Source: Gammaproteobacteria bacterium (GTDB taxonomy: Bacteria > Pseudomonadota > Gammaproteobacteria > Eutrophobiales > Eutrophobiaceae). Taken from it: a DNA stretch of 64,000 bases. The DNA lies in the NCBI GenBank assembly GCA_004297165.1, contig SCUJ01000001.1, positions 1-64,000 of the forward strand, read 5' to 3'. The notes below the pieces were generated by a model that had not been told where the DNA came from, searched no databases, and worked only from the letters and a program-made list of their open reading frames with translations. Position 1 is the stretch's first letter. Each line of letters opens with the position of its first letter. Positions 49,510-56,787 of the stretch are shown here, in pieces. A program made the translations under genes and the position numbers.

Positions 49510-49600
49510 GGAGAGATGGCCGAGAGGCCGAAGGCGCTCCCCTGCTAAGGGAGTATGGGCCAAAAGCCCATCGAGGGTTCGAATCCCTCTCTCTCCGCCA
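49510..49600 (+). tRNA. tRNA-Ser(GCT)
   Basis: 91 nt with CCA encoded. The acceptor stem GGAGAGA pairs with TCTCTCC; the anticodon loop in CTCCCCTGCTAAGGGAG gives anticodon GCT (serine AGC/AGU codons). There is a long variable arm (TATGGGCCAAAAGCCCATC) and a GGTTCGAATCC T-arm. A tRNA-Ser after csrA is usual in gammaproteobacteria. Confidence 0.97.
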
Positions 49601-49629: not shown

Positions 49630-50667
49630 TTGACGAACCTTACTTCATCCCCCTACCGAAAGTTGCTGATTTGCCGCCCCGGCTTCGAGGCCGCCTTGCT
49701 GGAGGAACTTGGGGATCGCAATGTGCCGGATACCGAGCGTGCTCCAGGATCGCCGGGTCTGGTCGGCATTGGGCGACGGCAGAACGTACCGGTCCCGATT
49801 TGTATCTTCGAGCGGCAGCGGTTGTCCGTGAACGGTTTCATCCCTGTGGAAGGACTCAAGCCGATCGCCGAGTCGTCGGTCCGGGATGTTTTCGGGTCAC
49901 TCCTCAAGGACGAACCAGCTCCGTGGACACTCCATGCGTACGCGATGGCGGAGGGTCTGGGGCGCCGGATCAGCGGGATCGCGAATGTCCTGCTCCGCCT
50001 GGCCTCACGCATCCAACCAGCCCTGGAGGCGAAACAACTCGAACCCACACACATTCAACCCGATACCCGTGTGATCCAGCTTTGCCTCACGGAAATGGGG
50101 CTGTGGCACGGGGCCGATGCGGCGCGGGATCTCAGTCACCCCGCCCCCGGCGGCGTGGGGCGCTATCGCCTTGATCCGCGCTCGCCCTCCCGTTCCTATC
50201 TCAAGATAGAGGAGGCCTTCGACCTTCTCGGGGTGGAACCGCGGGCGGGTGACCGGGTAGTGGACCTCGGCGCCGCGCCGGGCGGTTGGACGCTGGCCTT
50301 CCTTAGAAGAGGCTGTCGGGTAACGGCGGTCGATCACGGGGCCATGCGGATACCCGCGGAGTACGCGGATCGGTTGACGCATCGGCGGGAGAACGGATTA
50401 ACCTTCGGCTTGACCGACGGCCAGCCGGTGGATTGGCTGGCCTGCGACATGCTGATCCCGCCGGGACCGGCCCTGGGTCTGCTGCGACGCTGGGTCGGCG
50501 GGAAACTGGCGCACCGCTTCATCTGCAATATCAAGATCCCCCAGCAGCATCCCTGGGTGGCCATCAAGCCCGTCGATGACTGGCTGCGAAGTCAGAAAGG
50601 TCTCCGTTACCGGATCCGGCAGACCTATCACGACCGGCGGGAAGTCACGGTGATGGGGGAGTGGTGA
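49630..50667 (+). CDS. rlmM: RlmM-like 23S rRNA 2'-O-ribose methyltransferase
   Basis: About 345 residues. KLLICRPGFEAALLEELG matches the RlmM N-terminus; SRSYLKIEEAFDLLG, VVDLGAAPGGWTLAFL (SAM motif I), the Asp in WLACDMLIPP and the late Lys in CNIKIPQQ form an FtsJ-type K-D-K-E site, ending with YHDRREVTVMG. RlmM methylates C2498. The frame runs open back into the tRNA (ATG 49555), which cannot be the start; the best candidates are TTG 49630 or TTG 49663, neither with a clear ribosome binding site. Confidence 0.85.
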   Translation: MTNLTSSPYRKLLICRPGFEAALLEELGDRNVPDTERAPGSPGLVGIGRRQNVPVPICIFERQRLSVNGFIPVEGLKPIAESSVRDVFGSLLKDEPAPWTLHAYAMAEGLGRRISGIANVLLRLASRIQPALEAKQLEPTHIQPDTRVIQLCLTEMGLWHGADAARDLSHPAPGGVGRYRLDPRSPSRSYLKIEEAFDLLGVEPRAGDRVVDLGAAPGGWTLAFLRRGCRVTAVDHGAMRIPAEYADRLTHRRENGLTFGLTDGQPVDWLACDMLIPPGPALGLLRRWVGGKLAHRFICNIKIPQQHPWVAIKPVDDWLRSQKGLRYRIRQTYHDRREVTVMGEW

Positions 50668-50717
50668 GTCCCGTTCGTCGCATGTAAAAGCCTGTTTATG
50701 TAACCGGATGTCGCAGG

Positions 50718-50773
50718 TATAATTCGCCCGCGTTTAAGGATCCTTTAAACGTCATGCCGGCGCAGGCCGGCAT
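50718..50773 (+). promoter_or_regulatory. tRNA-Arg promoter region with REP-like palindrome
   Basis: A consensus TATAAT at 50718-50723 has a weak -35 (TTTATG, 50695-50700) 17 bp upstream. Downstream lie a perfect AAGGATCCTT palindrome and the inverted repeat ATGCCGGC-GCAG-GCCGGCAT at 50754-50773, a type of REP-like intergenic palindrome common in proteobacteria. It falls between the promoter and the tRNA. Confidence 0.6.
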
Positions 50774-50788
50774 CCAGTCAGAAATCAC

Positions 50789-50865
50789 GCGCCCGTAGCT
50801 CAGTTGGATAGAGTACTTGGCTACGAACCAAGGGGTCGGGAGTTCGAATCTCTCCGGGCGCGCCA
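50789..50865 (+). tRNA. tRNA-Arg(ACG)
   Basis: 77 nt with encoded CCA. Acceptor GCGCCCG pairs with CGGGCGC; the anticodon stem-loop CTTGG-CTACGAA-CCAAG places ACG at 50823-50825. A34 is the substrate of TadA, encoded at 41833. The AT-rich accessory block begins directly after this gene, so it may have been an integration site. Confidence 0.97.
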
Positions 50866-50871
50866 ATAATC

Positions 50872-50956
50872 GGGACTTACCTAATAGCGAAGACTTACCT
50901 TGTCTAATAGCGGATGGATTTCTAACCCCAGGACTTGAATTTAATAAGTTGTCCTG
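50872..50956. repeat. Short repeats between tRNA-Arg and the AT-rich block
   Basis: GACTTACC followed by CTAATAGCG occurs twice in imperfect tandem (50874-50889 and 50892-50912, the second with a 4-bp insertion). An inverted repeat CAGGAC (50929-50934) with GTCCTG (50951-50956) follows. These mark the edge of the AT-rich segment; a mobile-element boundary is possible but unproven. Confidence 0.55.
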
Positions 50957-50983
50957 TAAGAAATTGCCATATAGGATGATTCG

Positions 50984-51583
50984 ATGGTGAAGAAAGAAAT
51001 AGTTATCTCACTCTCCGCTTTATTCCTATCAGTATTGAGCTTTTGTTTTTCCCTATACTTGTTCAGCACTAATCAAAATATTTTAATAGCTGAGAAACGA
51101 AACCAAGTTTTATCCTTACTTCTAGAGCAACGGATTAGCTATAGTTCTTCTCAGAGAGATATAGAACTCGTTCTTGATGAATTAGAGCAAATTGAAAATG
51201 AACGTAAATCCTTCAAGGAAAAGGTACTTAACATAAAAGGTCATGATGTTATCAAACAAGAAATTATTTCTGACGTCGAGCAAGGTTCGGCCCTAATTCA
51301 GTCTAATACGGAAATTATTAACTTAATAAAGCAGAAACTTTCTGAAGGCTTGCGAGATATTAACAAGAGTATAGAAATTATTTCGGATTTCGATAATCGC
51401 CTAAATGCTATCGATTTAGAAAAGGCTCGTTCTCTTACAATGGAAAGTGAGAATTACCATCAAATGGCGTTGGAAAGCTACAAAGAAAGTAAGCGATCTA
51501 TATCTGAAGGTAATAAGTTTCATGCTGAAGCAGAGAAGTTTCTAAACGAAGTACTTCAAAATCAAAGTAGGATTGCGAAATAA
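50984..51583 (+). CDS. Membrane-anchored coiled-coil protein of unknown function
   Basis: 199 residues. One N-terminal membrane helix (about 5-28, VISLSALFLSVLSFCFSLYL) is followed by an almost continuous charged helical region (35-199) with heptad-like spacing. No known domain. Base composition is clearly AT-richer than the core genome. It converges with the helicase gene, with 3 bp between the stop codons, and shares its composition, so both probably arrived together. A structural or sensor role at the membrane is a guess. Confidence 0.75.
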   Translation: MVKKEIVISLSALFLSVLSFCFSLYLFSTNQNILIAEKRNQVLSLLLEQRISYSSSQRDIELVLDELEQIENERKSFKEKVLNIKGHDVIKQEIISDVEQGSALIQSNTEIINLIKQKLSEGLRDINKSIEIISDFDNRLNAIDLEKARSLTMESENYHQMALESYKESKRSISEGNKFHAEAEKFLNEVLQNQSRIAK

Positions 51584-51586
51584 TTT

Positions 51587-53257
51587 TTAGTTAGAGTTTT
51601 TGGATTGTTCCATTAATATTTTTAGTCGGCCCCAACTTTCTTCAGGAAGGATTTTTAGCAATTTAATTAATTTCTGATCACCACTTTTTAATATTTTATT
51701 CCTCAACCTTGGTGCTAATTCCTCGGCGAGCCTTACTTCTTCTTCATCTATATCCATGCCTCTAACGATGGCGCCAATTCTCAATGCTTCATCTAATGTT
51801 AATTTAAAATTATGTCCAAAATCATAGCCACACGTGTGGCAAGAAGTTGCTCCAGTCATATTAATCGCACCACATTCAAGGCAAGATTTTTTGCTTGGCG
51901 ATGCAACGGGAAAACTATGTTCACAGTTTGGGCAAATGTCAGACTTGAGTGGGCTTTCTGTATTGCAAATGGGACAACGTTTATGCCGTAGCTGAACGTT
52001 TTCCATCCGAGTAGAAGGAGACATTTCCTCTTCAACTCTGCGTGCATATTGTTCAAATGTTTCAAATGAAGGCATGATGACATAAGCACGAGTATCATCG
52101 TCGTAACCTTGAGTTCTTACTACCCTGCCGATAGCTTGCCGAAACGCTAATTCTGTTAATGCATTTGGAAGGTAAATAAGAACTCGTAAACGCTGGATGT
52201 CCACTCCTTCCGAAACCATAGCAACAGATACGAGCCAACGTTTATCTGTGTTTTTGAAAGCTTTAATTTTTAATTCTGGATTTGGCATCTGACTGTGAAC
52301 AATTAACGGCTTCTCGCTTTCAATTAATTCAATTAGGGCAGCCATATACTTAGCAACGTCGATTGAAGGTGCTATTACCAAACCACCTGCATTGGGCATC
52401 CTATATCTGAGTTCGGATAATTTATTTTTCGCATATTCAATCATTGTCGCCTGATATCCATCACGCAATGGAGTTACATTATCATGTTCGTATTGCGGAG
52501 TTCTTGCCAGACGATAGAAACTTAAAGCTGTTTGTAATCCAGGTATTCTTTTCAATTCCTTCGGAAGTTCTACAGGTGAATTACCTGATACAGTTACCGA
52601 GTCGCCATCTTCAAGATCGACTGTAAATTTACCCTCATGCCTATGAAATGTAACAGGTCGACAATAGCCAAGATCAACTGCCTCTCCATACGTTAAAGTA
52701 TATGTGCCTGCTGCTGGATGTTCGATGGAACCGGCATCGTCGTAAGCTAGCCATATTGTCTTTTCACTATCAGATCTAATTGGAGTACCTGTCAGCACAA
52801 GGACGAACTTAGCTGAGGAGAATGCGCTATCAGCACTCGTGCCCCATGCAGCTTCCACCGCAGCATGATGATGTTCATCGCATATCACTAGAGTCTTGTT
52901 CACCCTACATACAGCTTGTAATTCAGGTAAAAGCCCCTGAATTGCGGCCCATGTTGCGCAAATATCCAAATTTAATGCCGCAATTTCTCCATCGGAGGCG
53001 GTGACTTTCGTCATATGTCTAGTAGTAACGCTCCGATACTCATCGGACCATTGATTAACCACTTCAGCACGAGGGGCTATAACAATTACCCTTTCGATTT
53101 CATGTGACTGTATTAATTGATTTGCTATGGCACATGACACTAAAGTTTTCCCAGAGCCAGGCGCCGCATTAATCAAGAAATGGCGGTCAACCCTGTCTTG
53201 AATCAACCACTTTAAAGCCTGTTCCAAAGCTGCTGACTGCCATGGCCTTAAATTCAT
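51587..53257 (-). CDS. SF2 DEAD/DEAH helicase with C-terminal zinc ribbons (RadD-like architecture)
   Basis: 556 residues from ATG 53257, which overlaps the HNH stop by 4 bp; an in-frame ATG at 53284 is less likely. Motif I AAPGSGKT (31-38), motif II CDEHH (126-130), motif III TGTP (156-159) and motif VI QAIGRVVR are intact. The C-terminal part has CPIC...CPNC and CLEC...CHTC zinc ribbons. This resembles RadD/YejH and many phage or island helicases. It is the last gene of the four-gene operon and AT-rich. Confidence 0.9.
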   Translation of the reverse strand: MNLRPWQSAALEQALKWLIQDRVDRHFLINAAPGSGKTLVSCAIANQLIQSHEIERVIVIAPRAEVVNQWSDEYRSVTTRHMTKVTASDGEIAALNLDICATWAAIQGLLPELQAVCRVNKTLVICDEHHHAAVEAAWGTSADSAFSSAKFVLVLTGTPIRSDSEKTIWLAYDDAGSIEHPAAGTYTLTYGEAVDLGYCRPVTFHRHEGKFTVDLEDGDSVTVSGNSPVELPKELKRIPGLQTALSFYRLARTPQYEHDNVTPLRDGYQATMIEYAKNKLSELRYRMPNAGGLVIAPSIDVAKYMAALIELIESEKPLIVHSQMPNPELKIKAFKNTDKRWLVSVAMVSEGVDIQRLRVLIYLPNALTELAFRQAIGRVVRTQGYDDDTRAYVIMPSFETFEQYARRVEEEMSPSTRMENVQLRHKRCPICNTESPLKSDICPNCEHSFPVASPSKKSCLECGAINMTGATSCHTCGYDFGHNFKLTLDEALRIGAIVRGMDIDEEEVRLAEELAPRLRNKILKSGDQKLIKLLKILPEESWGRLKILMEQSKNSN

Positions 53258-53454
53258 ACCTTTGCCCCTTTTGCTAAATTGCATTCAGGACACAACGCTT
53301 GTCCATTGTTGGTGACAGTCCTCCCTCCTTTTGAAAAAGGGATGACATGATCCGCATGGAAACCGCTTTGAAGGAATTTTCCGCAAGCAACGCACTTACC
53401 GCCAGAAACAAACGCAAGAATGCGCTTTTGCCTTTTGGTAAATATTCGCTTCAT
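53254..53454 (-). CDS. Small HNH endonuclease
   Basis: 66 residues, a minimal HNH domain. Two zinc CxxC pairs (Cys21/Cys24 and Cys55/Cys58) frame the catalytic segment FHADHVIPFSKGG, with His36 as the likely general base and Asn50 as the second motif residue. It overlaps both neighbours by 4 bp (ATGA). Coupling with a helicase suggests a joint action on DNA; specificity is not predictable. Confidence 0.88.
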   Translation of the reverse strand: MKRIFTKRQKRILAFVSGGKCVACGKFLQSGFHADHVIPFSKGGRTVTNNGQALCPECNLAKGAKV

Positions 53455-53723
53455 TTAGACATCCAGTATTCTGTCAACTGAATTTCTCTGATAGGAAGAT
53501 TATTTGGTGGTTTGAAGATAGCAAAATCATTTACACGAACAACGGCAGTTGCGTATGGAACCTGTCTCGACTTGATTATCCAACCTTGGCTTCTCATCTC
53601 TGATATGACATCGGTAAGATTAGATACTCCAAATAATGTTATTGCTTCAAGGCGCGTGATTGGTTTGCCTGAAAATAAATGCTCCCTTACAGCAGTACCC
53701 ACACCATACTTTATACTTTTCAT
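53451..53723 (-). CDS. Small possible winged-helix protein
   Basis: 90 residues from ATG 53723, chosen because it overlaps the preceding stop by 4 bp; ATG 53744 is an alternative. The segment PITRLEAITLFGVSNLTDVI followed by SEMRSQGWIIKSRQ looks like a helix-turn-helix with a wing, as in small HTH proteins of phages and islands. It may regulate the operon or guide the nuclease. Function not known. Confidence 0.72.
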   Translation of the reverse strand: MKSIKYGVGTAVREHLFSGKPITRLEAITLFGVSNLTDVISEMRSQGWIIKSRQVPYATAVVRVNDFAIFKPPNNLPIREIQLTEYWMSK

Positions 53724-54046
53724 TCTGATATTACCGATATCCACCTGCTAATTCGGTTACTTAACCAAAGCTCATAATATTCACGTGTTTTTATATCCAT
53801 GTACTCTTGGCACTCAATTTCGAGAACCCTCCAACCGCCATCGGCAAAGATCTTATCAATACCTTGTGCCTCAAAAGGGGAACGGCCTTCACGTAGAGAA
53901 AATCGAAGATTCCTATCCTCTCTTGCCTCAATACCTATTAATCTGTTCGCTAAATCATATACCTCGATAGCGGTAAATTCACAGCCAAGTGAGGTACGTA
54001 GCTCCCTATAAATGGTTCGAAGTAATTTTGGCCTGTTTGAAGACAT
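53720..54046 (-). CDS. Small protein of unknown function, first gene of helicase-HNH operon
   Basis: 108 residues, no recognised domain. The first half is helical and basic (RPKLLRTIYRELRTSLG), the middle has LREGRSPFEAQGIDKIF and the end is rich in aromatic residues (YYELWLSNRISRWI). No signal peptide. Its stop overlaps the next start (ATGA), so the four genes are translationally coupled. Confidence 0.7.
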   Translation of the reverse strand: MSSNRPKLLRTIYRELRTSLGCEFTAIEVYDLANRLIGIEAREDRNLRFSLREGRSPFEAQGIDKIFADGGWRVLEIECQEYMDIKTREYYELWLSNRISRWISVISE

Positions 54047-54074
54047 ATTTATCGCGATTACGAATAATATTTGA

Positions 54075-54091
54075 ATGCATTATCGATGCAT
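54075..54091. promoter_or_regulatory. Palindromic element upstream of the helicase-HNH operon
   Basis: Two ATGCAT hexamers separated by TATCG, about 30 bp before the first ATG of the reverse-strand operon and overlapping the expected promoter zone. It could be the operator for the operon's own small HTH-like protein. A related sequence occurs at 59146-59164. Confidence 0.4.
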
Positions 54092-54267
54092 GATATTTCC
54101 TTCTGGTGGTTCAAAGCTACGTTCTACTGTTGGTATTATAGTTTGATCGCACATCTATAATTTATCTCACGTATTCCGCCACCTATTATTCACCTATTTG
54201 TATCTCGATGACGGCGGTAGAAACTATCACCTACAATCTAAGCATGCCAAACGAATCACCATTCTGG

Positions 54268-54420
54268 ATCTGATAATTTCTGCTTACATTTAAGAGTTGC
54301 AACCAAGCTGCCGCGGACGGTAAAAAGAGTAATACGGTCGCAGCCACAGCCTGCCATGAATGTGGCAGATGCACCGAACGGGCTCTATAAAAAACCCCGC
54401 GATCCTGCTGGTCAGGAACA
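54268..54420 (-). pseudogene. Decayed remnant of the 3' end of an MFS transporter gene
   Basis: This stretch matches 56902-57063, the end of the intact MFS gene and the bases just past its stop. Shared blocks include AAGCTGCCGCGGA, GGTCGCAGCCAC against AATCGCAGCCAC, GAATGTGGC, and CCCCGCGATC...GCTGG. Several insertions and deletions destroy the reading frame. With the intact copy it forms an imperfect direct repeat around fic and the ferritin-like gene. Confidence 0.75.
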
Positions 54421-54489
54421 AGGCTAAATCTGCTTACAGGCGTCAGTGTGTGCGCATTTCCTACCAATGGCGAAAGGAGAACCGTACCG

Positions 54490-54585
54490 TTGTAGGTACC
54501 AATCTTATTCTTATTATAAAATACTTAACATTAACCGCCAGTTATTCTAAGATTCTTAACGTTTTCCGGATCTGGCCGCCAGTTA
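54490..54585 (+). promoter_or_regulatory. Probable fic promoter with direct repeats
   Basis: TTGTAG (54490-54495) and TATAAA (54515-54520) with a 19-bp spacer could form the promoter. Downstream, CCGCCAGTTA occurs twice (54535-54544 and 54576-54585), the second copy touching the fic ATG, and a perfect TAAGATTCTTA palindrome (54548-54558) lies between them. These are plausible operator sites. Confidence 0.5.
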
Positions 54586-56061
54586 ATGCGAAAAATTCTA
54601 CAGCCGCCCGCGCAAGAGATTGTCTACGGTAGCGCCAAACCGAAAGAGTCCGTCGCCATCTCGCGCGAGGTAAGGGCCGGTCGGTTGCGCCGCATCGCCC
54701 CCAAGCTTTACACCGCCAATCTCAAAGATCCGCCTGAGAACATCATCCAGCGGCACCTGTACCAAATCCTCGCGCACTACTACCCCGGCGCGGTGGTGAG
54801 CCACCGCTCGGCGCTCGAAGGCGGGGTGGCGCGCGATAACACCATTTTTCTCACCTACAAGTACACCCGGCGCGTCACGTTGCCAGGGATCACGATCCGA
54901 CTGCTTAAGGGCAAGGGCCCGGTGGACGGGGATAACCCTTTCATGGAAGGTCTGTATCTTTCCTCGCGGCAGCGCGCCCTGCTCGAAAACATGCAGCCGG
55001 CGCGCGTCCGCGGCGGCGTGCCCAAAAGCTGGTCACGGGGGGAGATCGAGGCGTACCTGGATGAGATCGCGCGCGTTCATGGCGAGGCCGAACTCAACCG
55101 CCTGCGCGATGCCGCCCGGCGTATTGCCACACGGATCAAGCTGCGTGCTGAATTCAAGGCCCTGGACGCGATGATCGGCGCGATCCTCGGAACGCGCAAG
55201 ACAAAACTGAACTCGGAACCGGCGCGCGCACGCGCGGCCGGCGTGCCCTACGATGCGCATCGCCTGGAGCGTTTCATGACGCTCTTCGCGGCGCTGCGAC
55301 GCGCGGTGTTGCCCGTGCGCCAGGCGCCGATGCTCATCCCGGAGGGTATGCGCAATCTCGCGTTCTTCGAGGCCTACTTCTCGAACTATATAGAAGGCAC
55401 CGAGTTCATGGTGGAAGAGGCGGCCGATATTGTTTTTCGCGGCAAGCGCGTGCCCCTGCGCCCGGCCGATGCCCACGATATCCTCGGAACCTATCAAATC
55501 GTCGCCAACAGCGCGGAGATGAGCCGCGTTCCTGACACGGCTGACGAACTCATCGAGCTGCTCAAATCGCGCCACGCCACGCTGCTCGCCGGCCGACTCG
55601 AAAAACAGCCGGGGTGCTTCAAGGAAGAAGTGAACCGCGCAGGGGAGACGGTGTTCGTTGCGCCCGAGCTGGTTACGGGGACCTTGATCAAAGGTTTCGA
55701 ACCCTACCGCGCCCTCGATGACCCGCTGACCCGCGCGCTGTATATGATGTTCCTCATCGCCGAGGTTCACCCTTTTGCCGATGGCAACGGCCGCATTGCC
55801 CGCGTCATGCTGAACTCCGAACTCGTGCGCGGGGACAGGGTGCGGATTATCATCCCGACGGTTTATCGGGAGGATTACCTGCTGGCCCTGCGGGCGCTCA
55901 CGCGCCAGGGTAACGCCGATCCTTACATCAGAATGCTCGATCGGGCGCAGGATTTCACCGCGCGGATCGACTTCAACGACTACGGGCGGGCACTGGCCCA
56001 ATTGCGCGCGGCCAACGCCTTTCTCGATCCGCACGAAGGGCGGCTGCGCATGCCGGAATAA
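54586..56061 (+). CDS. Fic family AMPylase with AbiEi-like N-terminal domain
   Basis: 491 residues. The first 130 or so resemble the winged-helix and following domain of AbiEi-type antitoxins (VRAGRLRRIAPKLYT, VVSHRSALEGG, TRRVTLPGITIRLLKGKG). The Fic domain has the complete motif HPFADGNGRIAR from His395, and upstream the inhibitory motif SNYIEG (266-271), the S/TxxxE(G/N) type that blocks ATP by the glutamate. So the protein is probably an autoinhibited nucleotidyl-transferase that may also bind its own promoter. Composition is GC-rich, unlike the neighbouring AT-rich block. Confidence 0.88.
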   Translation: MRKILQPPAQEIVYGSAKPKESVAISREVRAGRLRRIAPKLYTANLKDPPENIIQRHLYQILAHYYPGAVVSHRSALEGGVARDNTIFLTYKYTRRVTLPGITIRLLKGKGPVDGDNPFMEGLYLSSRQRALLENMQPARVRGGVPKSWSRGEIEAYLDEIARVHGEAELNRLRDAARRIATRIKLRAEFKALDAMIGAILGTRKTKLNSEPARARAAGVPYDAHRLERFMTLFAALRRAVLPVRQAPMLIPEGMRNLAFFEAYFSNYIEGTEFMVEEAADIVFRGKRVPLRPADAHDILGTYQIVANSAEMSRVPDTADELIELLKSRHATLLAGRLEKQPGCFKEEVNRAGETVFVAPELVTGTLIKGFEPYRALDDPLTRALYMMFLIAEVHPFADGNGRIARVMLNSELVRGDRVRIIIPTVYREDYLLALRALTRQGNADPYIRMLDRAQDFTARIDFNDYGRALAQLRAANAFLDPHEGRLRMPE

Positions 56062-56259
56062 GCGGATGGATTCTAAGTTTGATTCCAGACCCGATCATCG
56101 CTCTTGCCTCCAACAACGTGCCTGTCTAAAGTATGTTTCAAGATCGCGTCTCCACAAAAGACGCAGACGCCCGCAGAAGGGACTCGGCTGGTGCGGATCA
56201 CTTGTGGCGCTTCCTAAGGGCCGTTTCGGAACATAAACACCATACCTGGAGTCGATTCA

Positions 56260-56787
56260 ATGTCCACCCGTCTTGATTTGTCAAAACTCAGCCTGATTGA
56301 CGCCCTCGACCTCGCGAAGCTGATCGAGATAGAGGCGCACCACCGCTACCTCATGTTCGCCACCCAACTCGGTGTCGGCAGCGGTTATGGCTACGATGCC
56401 GGCGCCTTTTTTGCCACCATGGCCGAGAACGAGGCCAAGCACGGCCGTGAACTTGAGACCCGGCGCAAGGCCCTGTTCGGCGATGAACCCGCACGGCTGA
56501 CACTGAGCGACCTGTTTGACGTCGAGGCCCCGGAAATGGGTGCGCCGCGCCGCGGCATGTCTACGCTTCAGGCGTTCGAGATCGGGCTCGCGGCTGAGAA
56601 GAAGGCCTACGACTTTTACGATATGACCTTGCCCAGCATCACCGATCCCGAGGTTCGGGAACTGTTCACCGAGCTTCGCGAGGAGGAAAACGAACACATC
56701 AAGATGCTGCGAGAGGCAATGGCCCAACTACCTCCGAGCGCTAACATTGAGATCGAGTACGACCCCGACGAGGCCCCCTATCTATAG
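56260..56787 (+). CDS. Ferritin-like/rubrerythrin-type di-iron protein
   Basis: 175 residues forming a four-helix bundle. Di-iron ligand motifs: LIEIEAHHRY near residue 22, AENEAKHGRE near 56, IGLAAEKKAYDFY near 107 and REEENEHIKML near 142. There is no C-terminal rubredoxin domain. Such proteins often reduce peroxide or store iron. It lies 198 bp after fic; a 200-bp spacer in between has no obvious gene. Confidence 0.85.
   Translation: MSTRLDLSKLSLIDALDLAKLIEIEAHHRYLMFATQLGVGSGYGYDAGAFFATMAENEAKHGRELETRRKALFGDEPARLTLSDLFDVEAPEMGAPRRGMSTLQAFEIGLAAEKKAYDFYDMTLPSITDPEVRELFTELREEENEHIKMLREAMAQLPPSANIEIEYDPDEAPYL

What the first reader, a model, noticed from the sequence alone, without database searches (positions are those of the whole stretch)
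51587..54046. Four-gene, fully ATGA-coupled operon: unknown + possible wHTH + HNH + SF2 zinc-ribbon helicase
All three junctions are 4-bp ATGA overlaps (53720-53723, 53451-53454, 53254-53257), an unusually strict coupling that implies fixed stoichiometry or a complex. The block is AT-rich against a GC-rich core, lies just after tRNA-Arg, and faces a membrane coiled-coil gene. Helicase-plus-HNH combinations are common in anti-phage systems and in phage replication cassettes; I cannot match this exact set to a named system such as Hachiman, Gabija, Zorya or type III restriction.
Basis: partly seen in the sequence, partly recalled or inferred. Interest (0 to 1): 0.65.

Follow-up and report, generated by a model that had tools for sequence, protein, structure and literature searches.

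The report
Conserved helicase–HNH nuclease defence-island operon
A bacterial four-gene operon pairs a DNA motor protein with a DNA-cutting enzyme; the same set recurs, sparsely, in many distantly related bacteria, often beside virus-defence genes, so it is probably an undescribed inducible antiviral or restriction-like module.

Summary
In detail: four minus-strand ORFs (54046-51587) joined by three ATGA overlaps in a 33-49% GC block. It is a conserved cassette. In all 46 loci from a two-pattern scan of 84,980 prokaryote genomes (all proteobacterial) the winged-helix gene lies upstream of the RadD-like SF2 helicase. An HNH is detected in 42, fused to the helicase in 18, separate in 24; gene 1 in 30 at E<=0.01. 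The wHTH/HNH 4-bp overlap is kept in 40 of 42. Motor, HNH and eight zinc-ribbon Cys residues are invariant. Phage and IMG/VR searches, within their limits, found no family member.

Neighbours are enriched in defence genes: 149 PADLOC families around 14 cassettes, 5 in 14 control stretches. RtcR-like CARF-sigma54 regulators lie nearby in 12 of 46; sigma54 promoter-like sites sit upstream in 11-14. Other loci have C5-methyltransferases or ECF sigma with CHAT/caspase genes. In the window's genome no CARF regulator and no close copy of that methyltransferase was found.

Best reading: a signal-gated, restriction-like helicase-nuclease defence cassette, matching no named system searched. Function is inferred, not shown.

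The parts
53720..54046 (-). gene 1: 108-aa small, probably helical protein of no known family
   Evidence: no Pfam, NCBIfam or PADLOC match at E<=1; tblastn homologue in the same place in 30 of 46 loci at E<=0.01, 33 counting three weaker ones; AlphaFold model all-helical, pLDDT 70.9, pTM 0.39; no Foldseek match at E<=0.001
53451..53723 (-). gene 2: 90-aa winged helix protein (HTH_39); a GTG start at 53744 is also possible
   Evidence: PF14090, 7.8e-8; upstream of the helicase on the same strand in 46 of 46 loci; alignment A13
53254..53454 (-). gene 3: 66-aa HNH endonuclease
   Evidence: PF01844, 9.4e-13; D35, H36, N50, N59 and Cys 21/24/55/58 invariant in 32 rows
51587..53257 (-). gene 4: 556-aa SF2 (ResIII/RadD-like) helicase with double zinc ribbon
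   Evidence: Walker A, DEHH, TGTP and Q..GR..R motifs and eight Cys invariant in 28 rows; top Foldseek match of the fused relative from L010 is RadD 7r7j
53254..53257 (-). ATGA junction HNH/helicase; the place where relatives are fused in frame
54298..54313 (-). weak sigma54-like -24/-12 candidate about 250 bases before gene 1
   Evidence: score 12.5 of 14.5; 8 of 200 shuffles as good; may be chance

Best explanation
The operon encodes a restriction-like, DNA-directed defence effector. A RadD-like SF2 motor with zinc ribbons translocates on or unwinds DNA and works with an HNH nuclease (one polypeptide in many relatives) that nicks or cuts it. The wHTH protein and the small gene-1 protein most likely supply DNA binding, loading or autoregulation. 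In a good part of the relatives expression is probably kept low until a danger signal arrives: an RtcR-like CARF-sigma54 activator with a -24/-12 promoter, or an ECF sigma beside a CHAT/caspase protease. In another clade a C5 methyltransferase beside it may mark self DNA. Shown here: gene order, linkage, conserved catalytic residues, fusion, purifying selection in relatives, defence-rich neighbourhoods, association with the regulator gene and promoter-like sites. Inferred: DNA cutting, anti-phage activity, roles of genes 1 and 2, gating. How the window's copy is controlled is unknown.
For: 46 of 46 loci keep wHTH upstream of the helicase and 42 of 46 an HNH. Fused in 18, split in 24; at least 4 changes on the tree. 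wHTH/HNH NTGA overlap 40 of 42. dN/dS 0.01-0.19 in the 15 of 19 comparisons that could be computed, between relatives only, several with saturated dS. Invariant motor, HNH and zinc residues. PADLOC 149 families near 14 cassettes, 5 in controls. CARF-sigma54 cluster in 12 of 46 loci, and on the cassette's contig in L023; in the 20 genomes a match reaching through the CARF part occurs in 7, namely the six whose locus has the gene plus L023's. Sigma54-like sites: 12 in 31.6 kb upstream, 21 in 1,378 kb elsewhere; upstream in 8 of 13 regulator loci and 3 of 33 others. C5 methyltransferase cluster in 7 loci; ECF-type sigma in 5. tRNA close upstream in 5 of 33 loci scanned. Fold neighbours include RadD, LlaBIII, SauUSI, HsdR.
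Against: No experiment. No PADLOC model fits the cassette itself. In the window's genome no CARF domain (a search without a positive control) and only a weak methyltransferase match were found, and its sigma54-like site is weak. L046 and L054 have the regulator but no site before the cassette; L027 has a perfect site but its genome shows no match through the CARF part. Some loci (L042, L045, L062) sit, by eye, between housekeeping genes. HNH is missing in 4 of 46 and carries a stop in L042, so the nuclease is not always needed. The nearest solved structure is RadD, a repair protein, and chromatin-remodelling motors match about as well as restriction motors. Locus counts are not phylogenetically independent.
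Confidence: 0.57

Rival explanations
1. A genome-maintenance module: a RadD-like helicase with HNH that processes stalled forks or damaged DNA (similar in logic to ZRANB3/AH2), induced by stress through sigma54 or ECF regulators, its neighbours reflecting generic accessory islands.
For: Best Foldseek match is RadD. The helicase hits the RadD NCBIfam model at 43 bits. ZRANB3/AH2 joins a Snf2 motor with an HNH motif (PMC3409536, passages). RtcR itself controls RNA repair (PMC7790460, abstract opening in the listing).
Against: Score far below the RadD cut-off of 720. Very patchy distribution: 2 of 368 other class genomes and 0 of 397 other phylum genomes. Defence-gene enrichment around 14 cassettes. 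AT-rich insert in a GC-rich genome.
Confidence: 0.2
2. A replication or recombination cassette of a phage or integrative element left in the chromosome.
For: Helicase matches phrog_16 (8.2e-42) and HNH matches phage HNH families. Some relatives lie near tRNAs, and L012 holds ParA-like and replication-like ORFs by eye.
Against: tblastn of the helicase against 50,697 phage records finds 3 hits under 30% identity, the wHTH none. Three IMG/VR scans found no relative and a fourth two 26% partial hits; these scans start from a few short peptide patterns. I recognised no phage structural genes in the neighbour ORFs printed (the second output was cut).
Confidence: 0.08
3. A classical restriction-modification enzyme whose modification partner is the neighbouring C5 methyltransferase.
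For: A related C5 methyltransferase (PF00145 shown for L040) lies near the cassette in 7 loci, directly convergent with the helicase in four (L038, L039, L040, L044).
Against: That methyltransferase cluster is absent from the other 39 of 46 loci; the window's genome has only a weak match (E 7.9e-7). No specificity subunit was seen in the operon.
Confidence: 0.1

Closest known systems
RadD/YejH DNA repair helicase
   Same: SF2 core; top Foldseek match, 20% identity over 536 alignment columns but TM-score only 0.39-0.42; profile hit among PDB sequences 5.9e-11
   Different: 43 bits against an equivalog cut-off of 720; I recall no HNH partner or wHTH operon for RadD
ATP-dependent restriction enzymes: Type ISP (LlaBIII/LlaGI), SauUSI, Type I HsdR
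   Same: Related translocase core; a DNA motor tied to a nuclease
   Different: HNH instead of their own nuclease domains (recalled), a separate wHTH, no methyltransferase or specificity subunit in the operon
RtcR/CARF-sigma54-associated defence loci, including CoCoNuTs
   Same: CARF-sigma54 regulators beside restriction-type genes (PMC4012209 and PMC11090510, passages); the same regulator type is near 12 of 46 relatives (PADLOC RtcR_PspF2 in 5 neighbours)
   Different: The effector here is HNH plus RadD-like helicase, not McrBC-type; no such regulator was found in the window's genome
ZRANB3/AH2
   Same: Snf2-type motor joined to an HNH motif (PMC3409536, passages)
   Different: Eukaryotic; HNH at the C-terminus and no nuclease activity seen in that paper's account; no operon partners
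Septu PtuB, Zorya, Gabija, Hachiman
   Same: HNH or helicase/ATPase parts; weak PtuB model hit for the HNH (0.0027)
   Different: Their hallmark partner genes (recalled) are not in the operon; only weak sub-domain model hits

Membership tests
RadD equivalog (NF053632) | score above curated cut-off 720 bits | tested here: not met
   43.1 bits
Named systems in PADLOC-DB 2.0.0 | component models match over their length | tested here: not met
   genes 1 and 2 no match; HNH and helicase only partial sub-domain hits, best PbeA 6.1e-15 over residues 2-162; 25 of 48 helicase rows were shown
Type III restriction | Mod methyltransferase subunit beside Res | tested here: not met
   no DNA methyltransferase among the 7 window proteins scanned, which include the four genes, an FtsJ-like gene at 49555 and a Fic gene at 54586
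Type III restriction | ResIII-type motor | tested here: met
   PF04851 1.5e-22
Zorya / Gabija / Hachiman | ZorAB, GajAB or HamAB partners in the operon (recalled) | tested here: not met
   no such strong model match among the four genes; a Zorya-like cluster, named by eye, lies beside the cassette in L028 but is separate
Phage replication helicase cassette | four-gene set present in phage genomes | tested here: not met
   within the limits of pattern-based scans
CARF-sigma54 (RtcR-like) controlled locus | CARF-sigma54 activator next to the operon or in the genome | tested here: not met
   none beside the window's operon; CARF profile A15 finds nothing in its genome, without positive control; a full-length regulator matches only sigma54 activators from residue 142 on. 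Met near 12 of 46 relatives
CARF-sigma54 (RtcR-like) controlled locus | -24/-12 promoter upstream | tested here: inconclusive
   window site 12.5 of 14.5, 8 of 200 shuffles as good
HNH endonuclease domain | DH/N/N residues and Cys4 zinc site | tested here: met
   invariant in 32 rows; which residue is catalytic is recalled
Any defence system | protection against phage or plasmid | not testable with these tools
   needs bench work

The most novel reading that the evidence does not exclude
The cassette is a previously unnamed immune effector in which one HNH-helicase DNA-destroying machine is plugged into interchangeable danger sensors: CARF-sigma54 activators reading RNA damage or nucleotide signals, ECF sigma modules beside CHAT/caspase proteases, or methylation-based self-marking. 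The effector evolves between one-gene and two-gene forms while its wHTH partner stays translationally locked to the nuclease.
Probability: 0.3. Interest if true: 0.75.

Novelty: new variant of a known kind. Interest (0 to 1): 0.55.

Why it matters
If true, it adds an unnamed helicase-nuclease defence module, found from Pelagibacter to Polynucleobacter, Sphingomonas and Competibacteraceae, and a natural test case for how bacteria put the same DNA-destroying effector under different infection-sensing transcription switches. It also gives a small, ready-made pair (split against fused HNH-helicase) for biochemistry.

Tried and rejected
Phage-replication reading: disfavoured after phage and IMG/VR searches. 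Coiled-coil gene 50984-51583 as a fifth component: no tblastn match in the other loci compared. att site from tRNA-Arg: no direct repeat of the tRNA end in 50600-56300. Programmed frameshift joining HNH and helicase in the window: considered from the -1 overlap, no good slippery site seen by eye, not pursued. Plasmid relatives (about 30% identity helicases): the 192-aa partner on one Pseudomonas plasmid looked winged-helix-like by eye but shows no relation to gene 2 and no Pfam match. Gene 1 fold: no match at E<=0.001. Gene 1 and gene 2 profiles against PDB sequences: nothing convincing. Window promoter scan uninformative: 9 sigma70-like found, 8.0 expected. Empty-site comparison through the flanking FtsJ-like gene: of 41 family genomes only the window's own matched.

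Rows dropped and soft spots: L012 is the same locus as L022 and L013 the same as L025. L012, L058 and L061 were left out of the tree. The census tblastn used an E limit of 10; every wHTH hit is 8e-13 or better, but three gene-1 hits are weak (L044 0.02, L049 0.7, L050 2), hence 30 of 46. L042 is in the split count only because its HNH frame has a stop, and was dropped from the HNH alignment. Near-identical loci (L056/L057, L019/L021, L028/L029) are counted separately. The 12 CARF-sigma54 loci come from clustering: the domain was checked by Pfam in two and PADLOC reports five members; the ORFs in L018, L026 and L030 are short (291, 399, 285 aa). For the PADLOC comparison four pairs were dropped on both sides to keep within the residue cap (L020/L078, L023/L092, L056/L093, L062/L094) and one 2860-aa control ORF was left out. 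Cassette loci were chosen from the 20; control stretches were arbitrary, not random, many on contigs listed in that call. Family counts overlap, so 149 is not a number of proteins. The sigma54 consensus and weights are recalled and the 13.5 threshold was set after first scores were seen, so the p-values are descriptive.

Full report
Observation. The minus strand of the window carries four ORFs: gene 1 (54046-53720, 108 aa), gene 2 (53723-53451, 90 aa), gene 3 (53454-53254, 66 aa) and gene 4 (53257-51587, 556 aa). All three junctions are 4-bp ATGA overlaps as reported. The block has 0.335-0.49 GC against 0.57-0.67 around it. In a simple ORF set for the window 9 of 50 same-strand neighbouring pairs have an NTGA overlap, three of them these, so such coupling is common; what counts is whether it is conserved.

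Protein content. Pfam gives HTH_39 for gene 2, HNH for gene 3, ResIII and Helicase_C for gene 4 and, just under its cut-off, a double zinc ribbon; gene 1 has no match. PADLOC, NCBIfam and PHROGs give only partial or below-cut-off matches, apart from the broad phage helicase and HNH families. The RadD equivalog model scores 43 bits against a cut-off of 720.

Relatives. In the window's class 3 of 369 genomes match, the window's own included; the two others carry gene 1, gene 2 and one 620-aa protein in which HNH and helicase are fused. One scan of 84,980 prokaryote genomes, starting from two peptide patterns, gave 46 loci, by their record titles all proteobacterial. wHTH lies upstream on the same strand in 46 of 46 and an HNH is found in 42 of 46; gene 1 is found in 30 of 46 at E<=0.01, 33 with three weaker hits. 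HNH and helicase are fused in 18 and split in 24, with at least four changes on the helicase tree. HNH is not found in L023, L024, L030 and L048, and L042's HNH has an in-frame stop. The NTGA overlap is present at wHTH/HNH in 40 of 42, at gene 1/wHTH in 13 of 33, and at HNH/helicase in 11 of 24 split loci. The window's helicase groups with L018 (Thiobacillus), L019-L021 (Seongchinamella, HTCC2148, Parahaliea) and L031, L034, L035 (Polynucleobacter, Zwartia): eight rows, SH-aLRT 97, quick tree. Of 398 sampled genomes of the phylum only the window's own matches at E<=1e-80. The cassette is rare and patchy.

Function is under selection. Walker A, DEHH, TGTP, the motif VI arginines and eight zinc-ribbon cysteines are invariant in 28 helicases. 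D35, H36, N50, N59 and four cysteines are invariant in 32 HNH rows. dN/dS lies between 0.01 and 0.19 in the 15 of 19 gene comparisons (five pairs of relatives, not the window) where dS could be computed, several with dS above 1.

Structure. The fused relative from L010 (620 aa) folds with pLDDT 79.4. The best Foldseek match is RadD (E 2.4e-16, TM-score about 0.4); the Type ISP enzyme LlaBIII, SauUSI, HsdR and also ISWI-type chromatin remodellers follow. VIA-align puts chains of transcription/repair complexes (7egb, 9pd3) and RadD at Z 21-22 over the motor core. Gene 1 is predicted all-helical at moderate confidence (pLDDT 70.9) with no match at E<=0.001.

Not evidently a phage cassette. tblastn of the helicase against 50,697 phage records gives three hits under 30% identity, and the wHTH none. 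Three IMG/VR scans gave no relative, a fourth two 26% partial hits; all start from a few peptide patterns. On plasmids there are about 30% identical helicases; in three Streptomyces plasmids the match extends over the HNH part (query from residue 2).

Neighbourhood. Around 14 cassettes (104 ORFs of at least 200 aa) PADLOC finds 149 families at E<=1e-15; 14 control stretches from the same genomes (155 ORFs) give 5, each with one member. Recurrent items are RtcR_PspF2 CARF-AAA-HTH regulators (5 members), Type I restriction enzymes and methyltransferases (3 each). By eye, L028 has a Zorya-like cluster, L037 a DISARM-like helicase with a methylase, and L012/L022 a Cas1-like ORF; L042, L045 and L062 look like housekeeping surroundings. 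tRNAs lie within 1 kb upstream of gene 1 or its place in 5 of 33 loci scanned (L033, L038, L039, L041, L043).

Switches. A cluster of RtcR-like CARF-sigma54 regulators has members in 12 of 46 loci, three of them short; another lies on the cassette's contig in L023. Among 20 genomes searched with one of these proteins, 7 have a match that reaches through the CARF part: the six with the gene in the locus and L023's. Strong -24/-12 matches occur 12 times in 31.6 kb of upstream sequence against 21 times in 1,378 kb elsewhere; 8 of 13 regulator loci have one, 3 of 33 others. L019-L021 have theirs further upstream, before an ARPP-1 gene (domain shown for L020). Against this, L046 and L054 have the regulator without the site, and L027 a perfect site without a regulator found in its genome. 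Seven other loci, none with the regulator, hold a related C5 methyltransferase. L031, L034, L035, L049 and L051 have an ECF-type sigma gene (in L049 only a below-cut-off region 4 match); CHAT domains occur in L031, L049, L050 and L051 and a caspase domain in L034. The small ORFs adjoining the sigma genes have no Pfam match, so calling them anti-sigma factors would be a guess. CARF-sigma54 regulators next to restriction systems are already described (PMC4012209, PMC11090510; passages): the regulator is known, the effector is what appears undescribed.

The window's own copy. Its genome shows no match to the CARF profile, in a search without a positive control, and only a weak methyltransferase match. 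A sigma54-like site about 250 bases before gene 1 is weak. Its control is unknown.

Literature. None of the titles and abstract openings listed describes this set. Passages only were seen of PMC11090510, PMC4012209, PMC10853773, PMC12458937, PMC3409536 and PMC13092281. Subscription papers and supplementary tables were not seen, so an entry in a large prediction table cannot be excluded.

Conclusion. A conserved, rare, apparently horizontally spread helicase-HNH cassette, often in defence-rich surroundings, most likely a restriction-like effector under infection- or stress-responsive control in many hosts. Biochemical activity and anti-phage function remain to be shown.

Noticed in passing
window 54586-56061 (+): Divergent Fic/DOC protein (PF02661, 1.2e-11) next to the operon, with host-like GC.
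   Followed up: no
window 50984-51583 (+): 199-aa AT-rich ORF with an N-terminal membrane-like stretch and coiled-coil look, 3 bases from the helicase stop on the opposite strand; no tblastn match in the other cassette loci.
   Followed up: partly
L019 4353, L020 4343, L021 4374, L036 5323 (-): A -24/-12 site also lies between the CARF-sigma54 regulator and the neighbouring type I restriction gene, as if one regulator controlled both.
   Followed up: partly
L031, L034, L049, L050, L051: CHAT or caspase-domain proteins near the cassette, with an ECF-type sigma gene in four of the five; L035 has a similar ORF to L034's that was not scanned.
   Followed up: partly
L069 (Enterobacter hormaechei plasmid): A distant helicase overlapped by 4 bp by a 189-aa ORF, with a divergent HTH gene, lies beside CBASS and TIR-domain genes.
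   Followed up: no
L056-L058 (Pelagibacter): HNH and helicase are separated by a TAA stop; in L056/L057 the two lie in the same reading frame, a minimal fission of the fused form.
   Followed up: no
L042 7790-7978: HNH reading frame carries an in-frame stop while the helicase frame is open.
   Followed up: no
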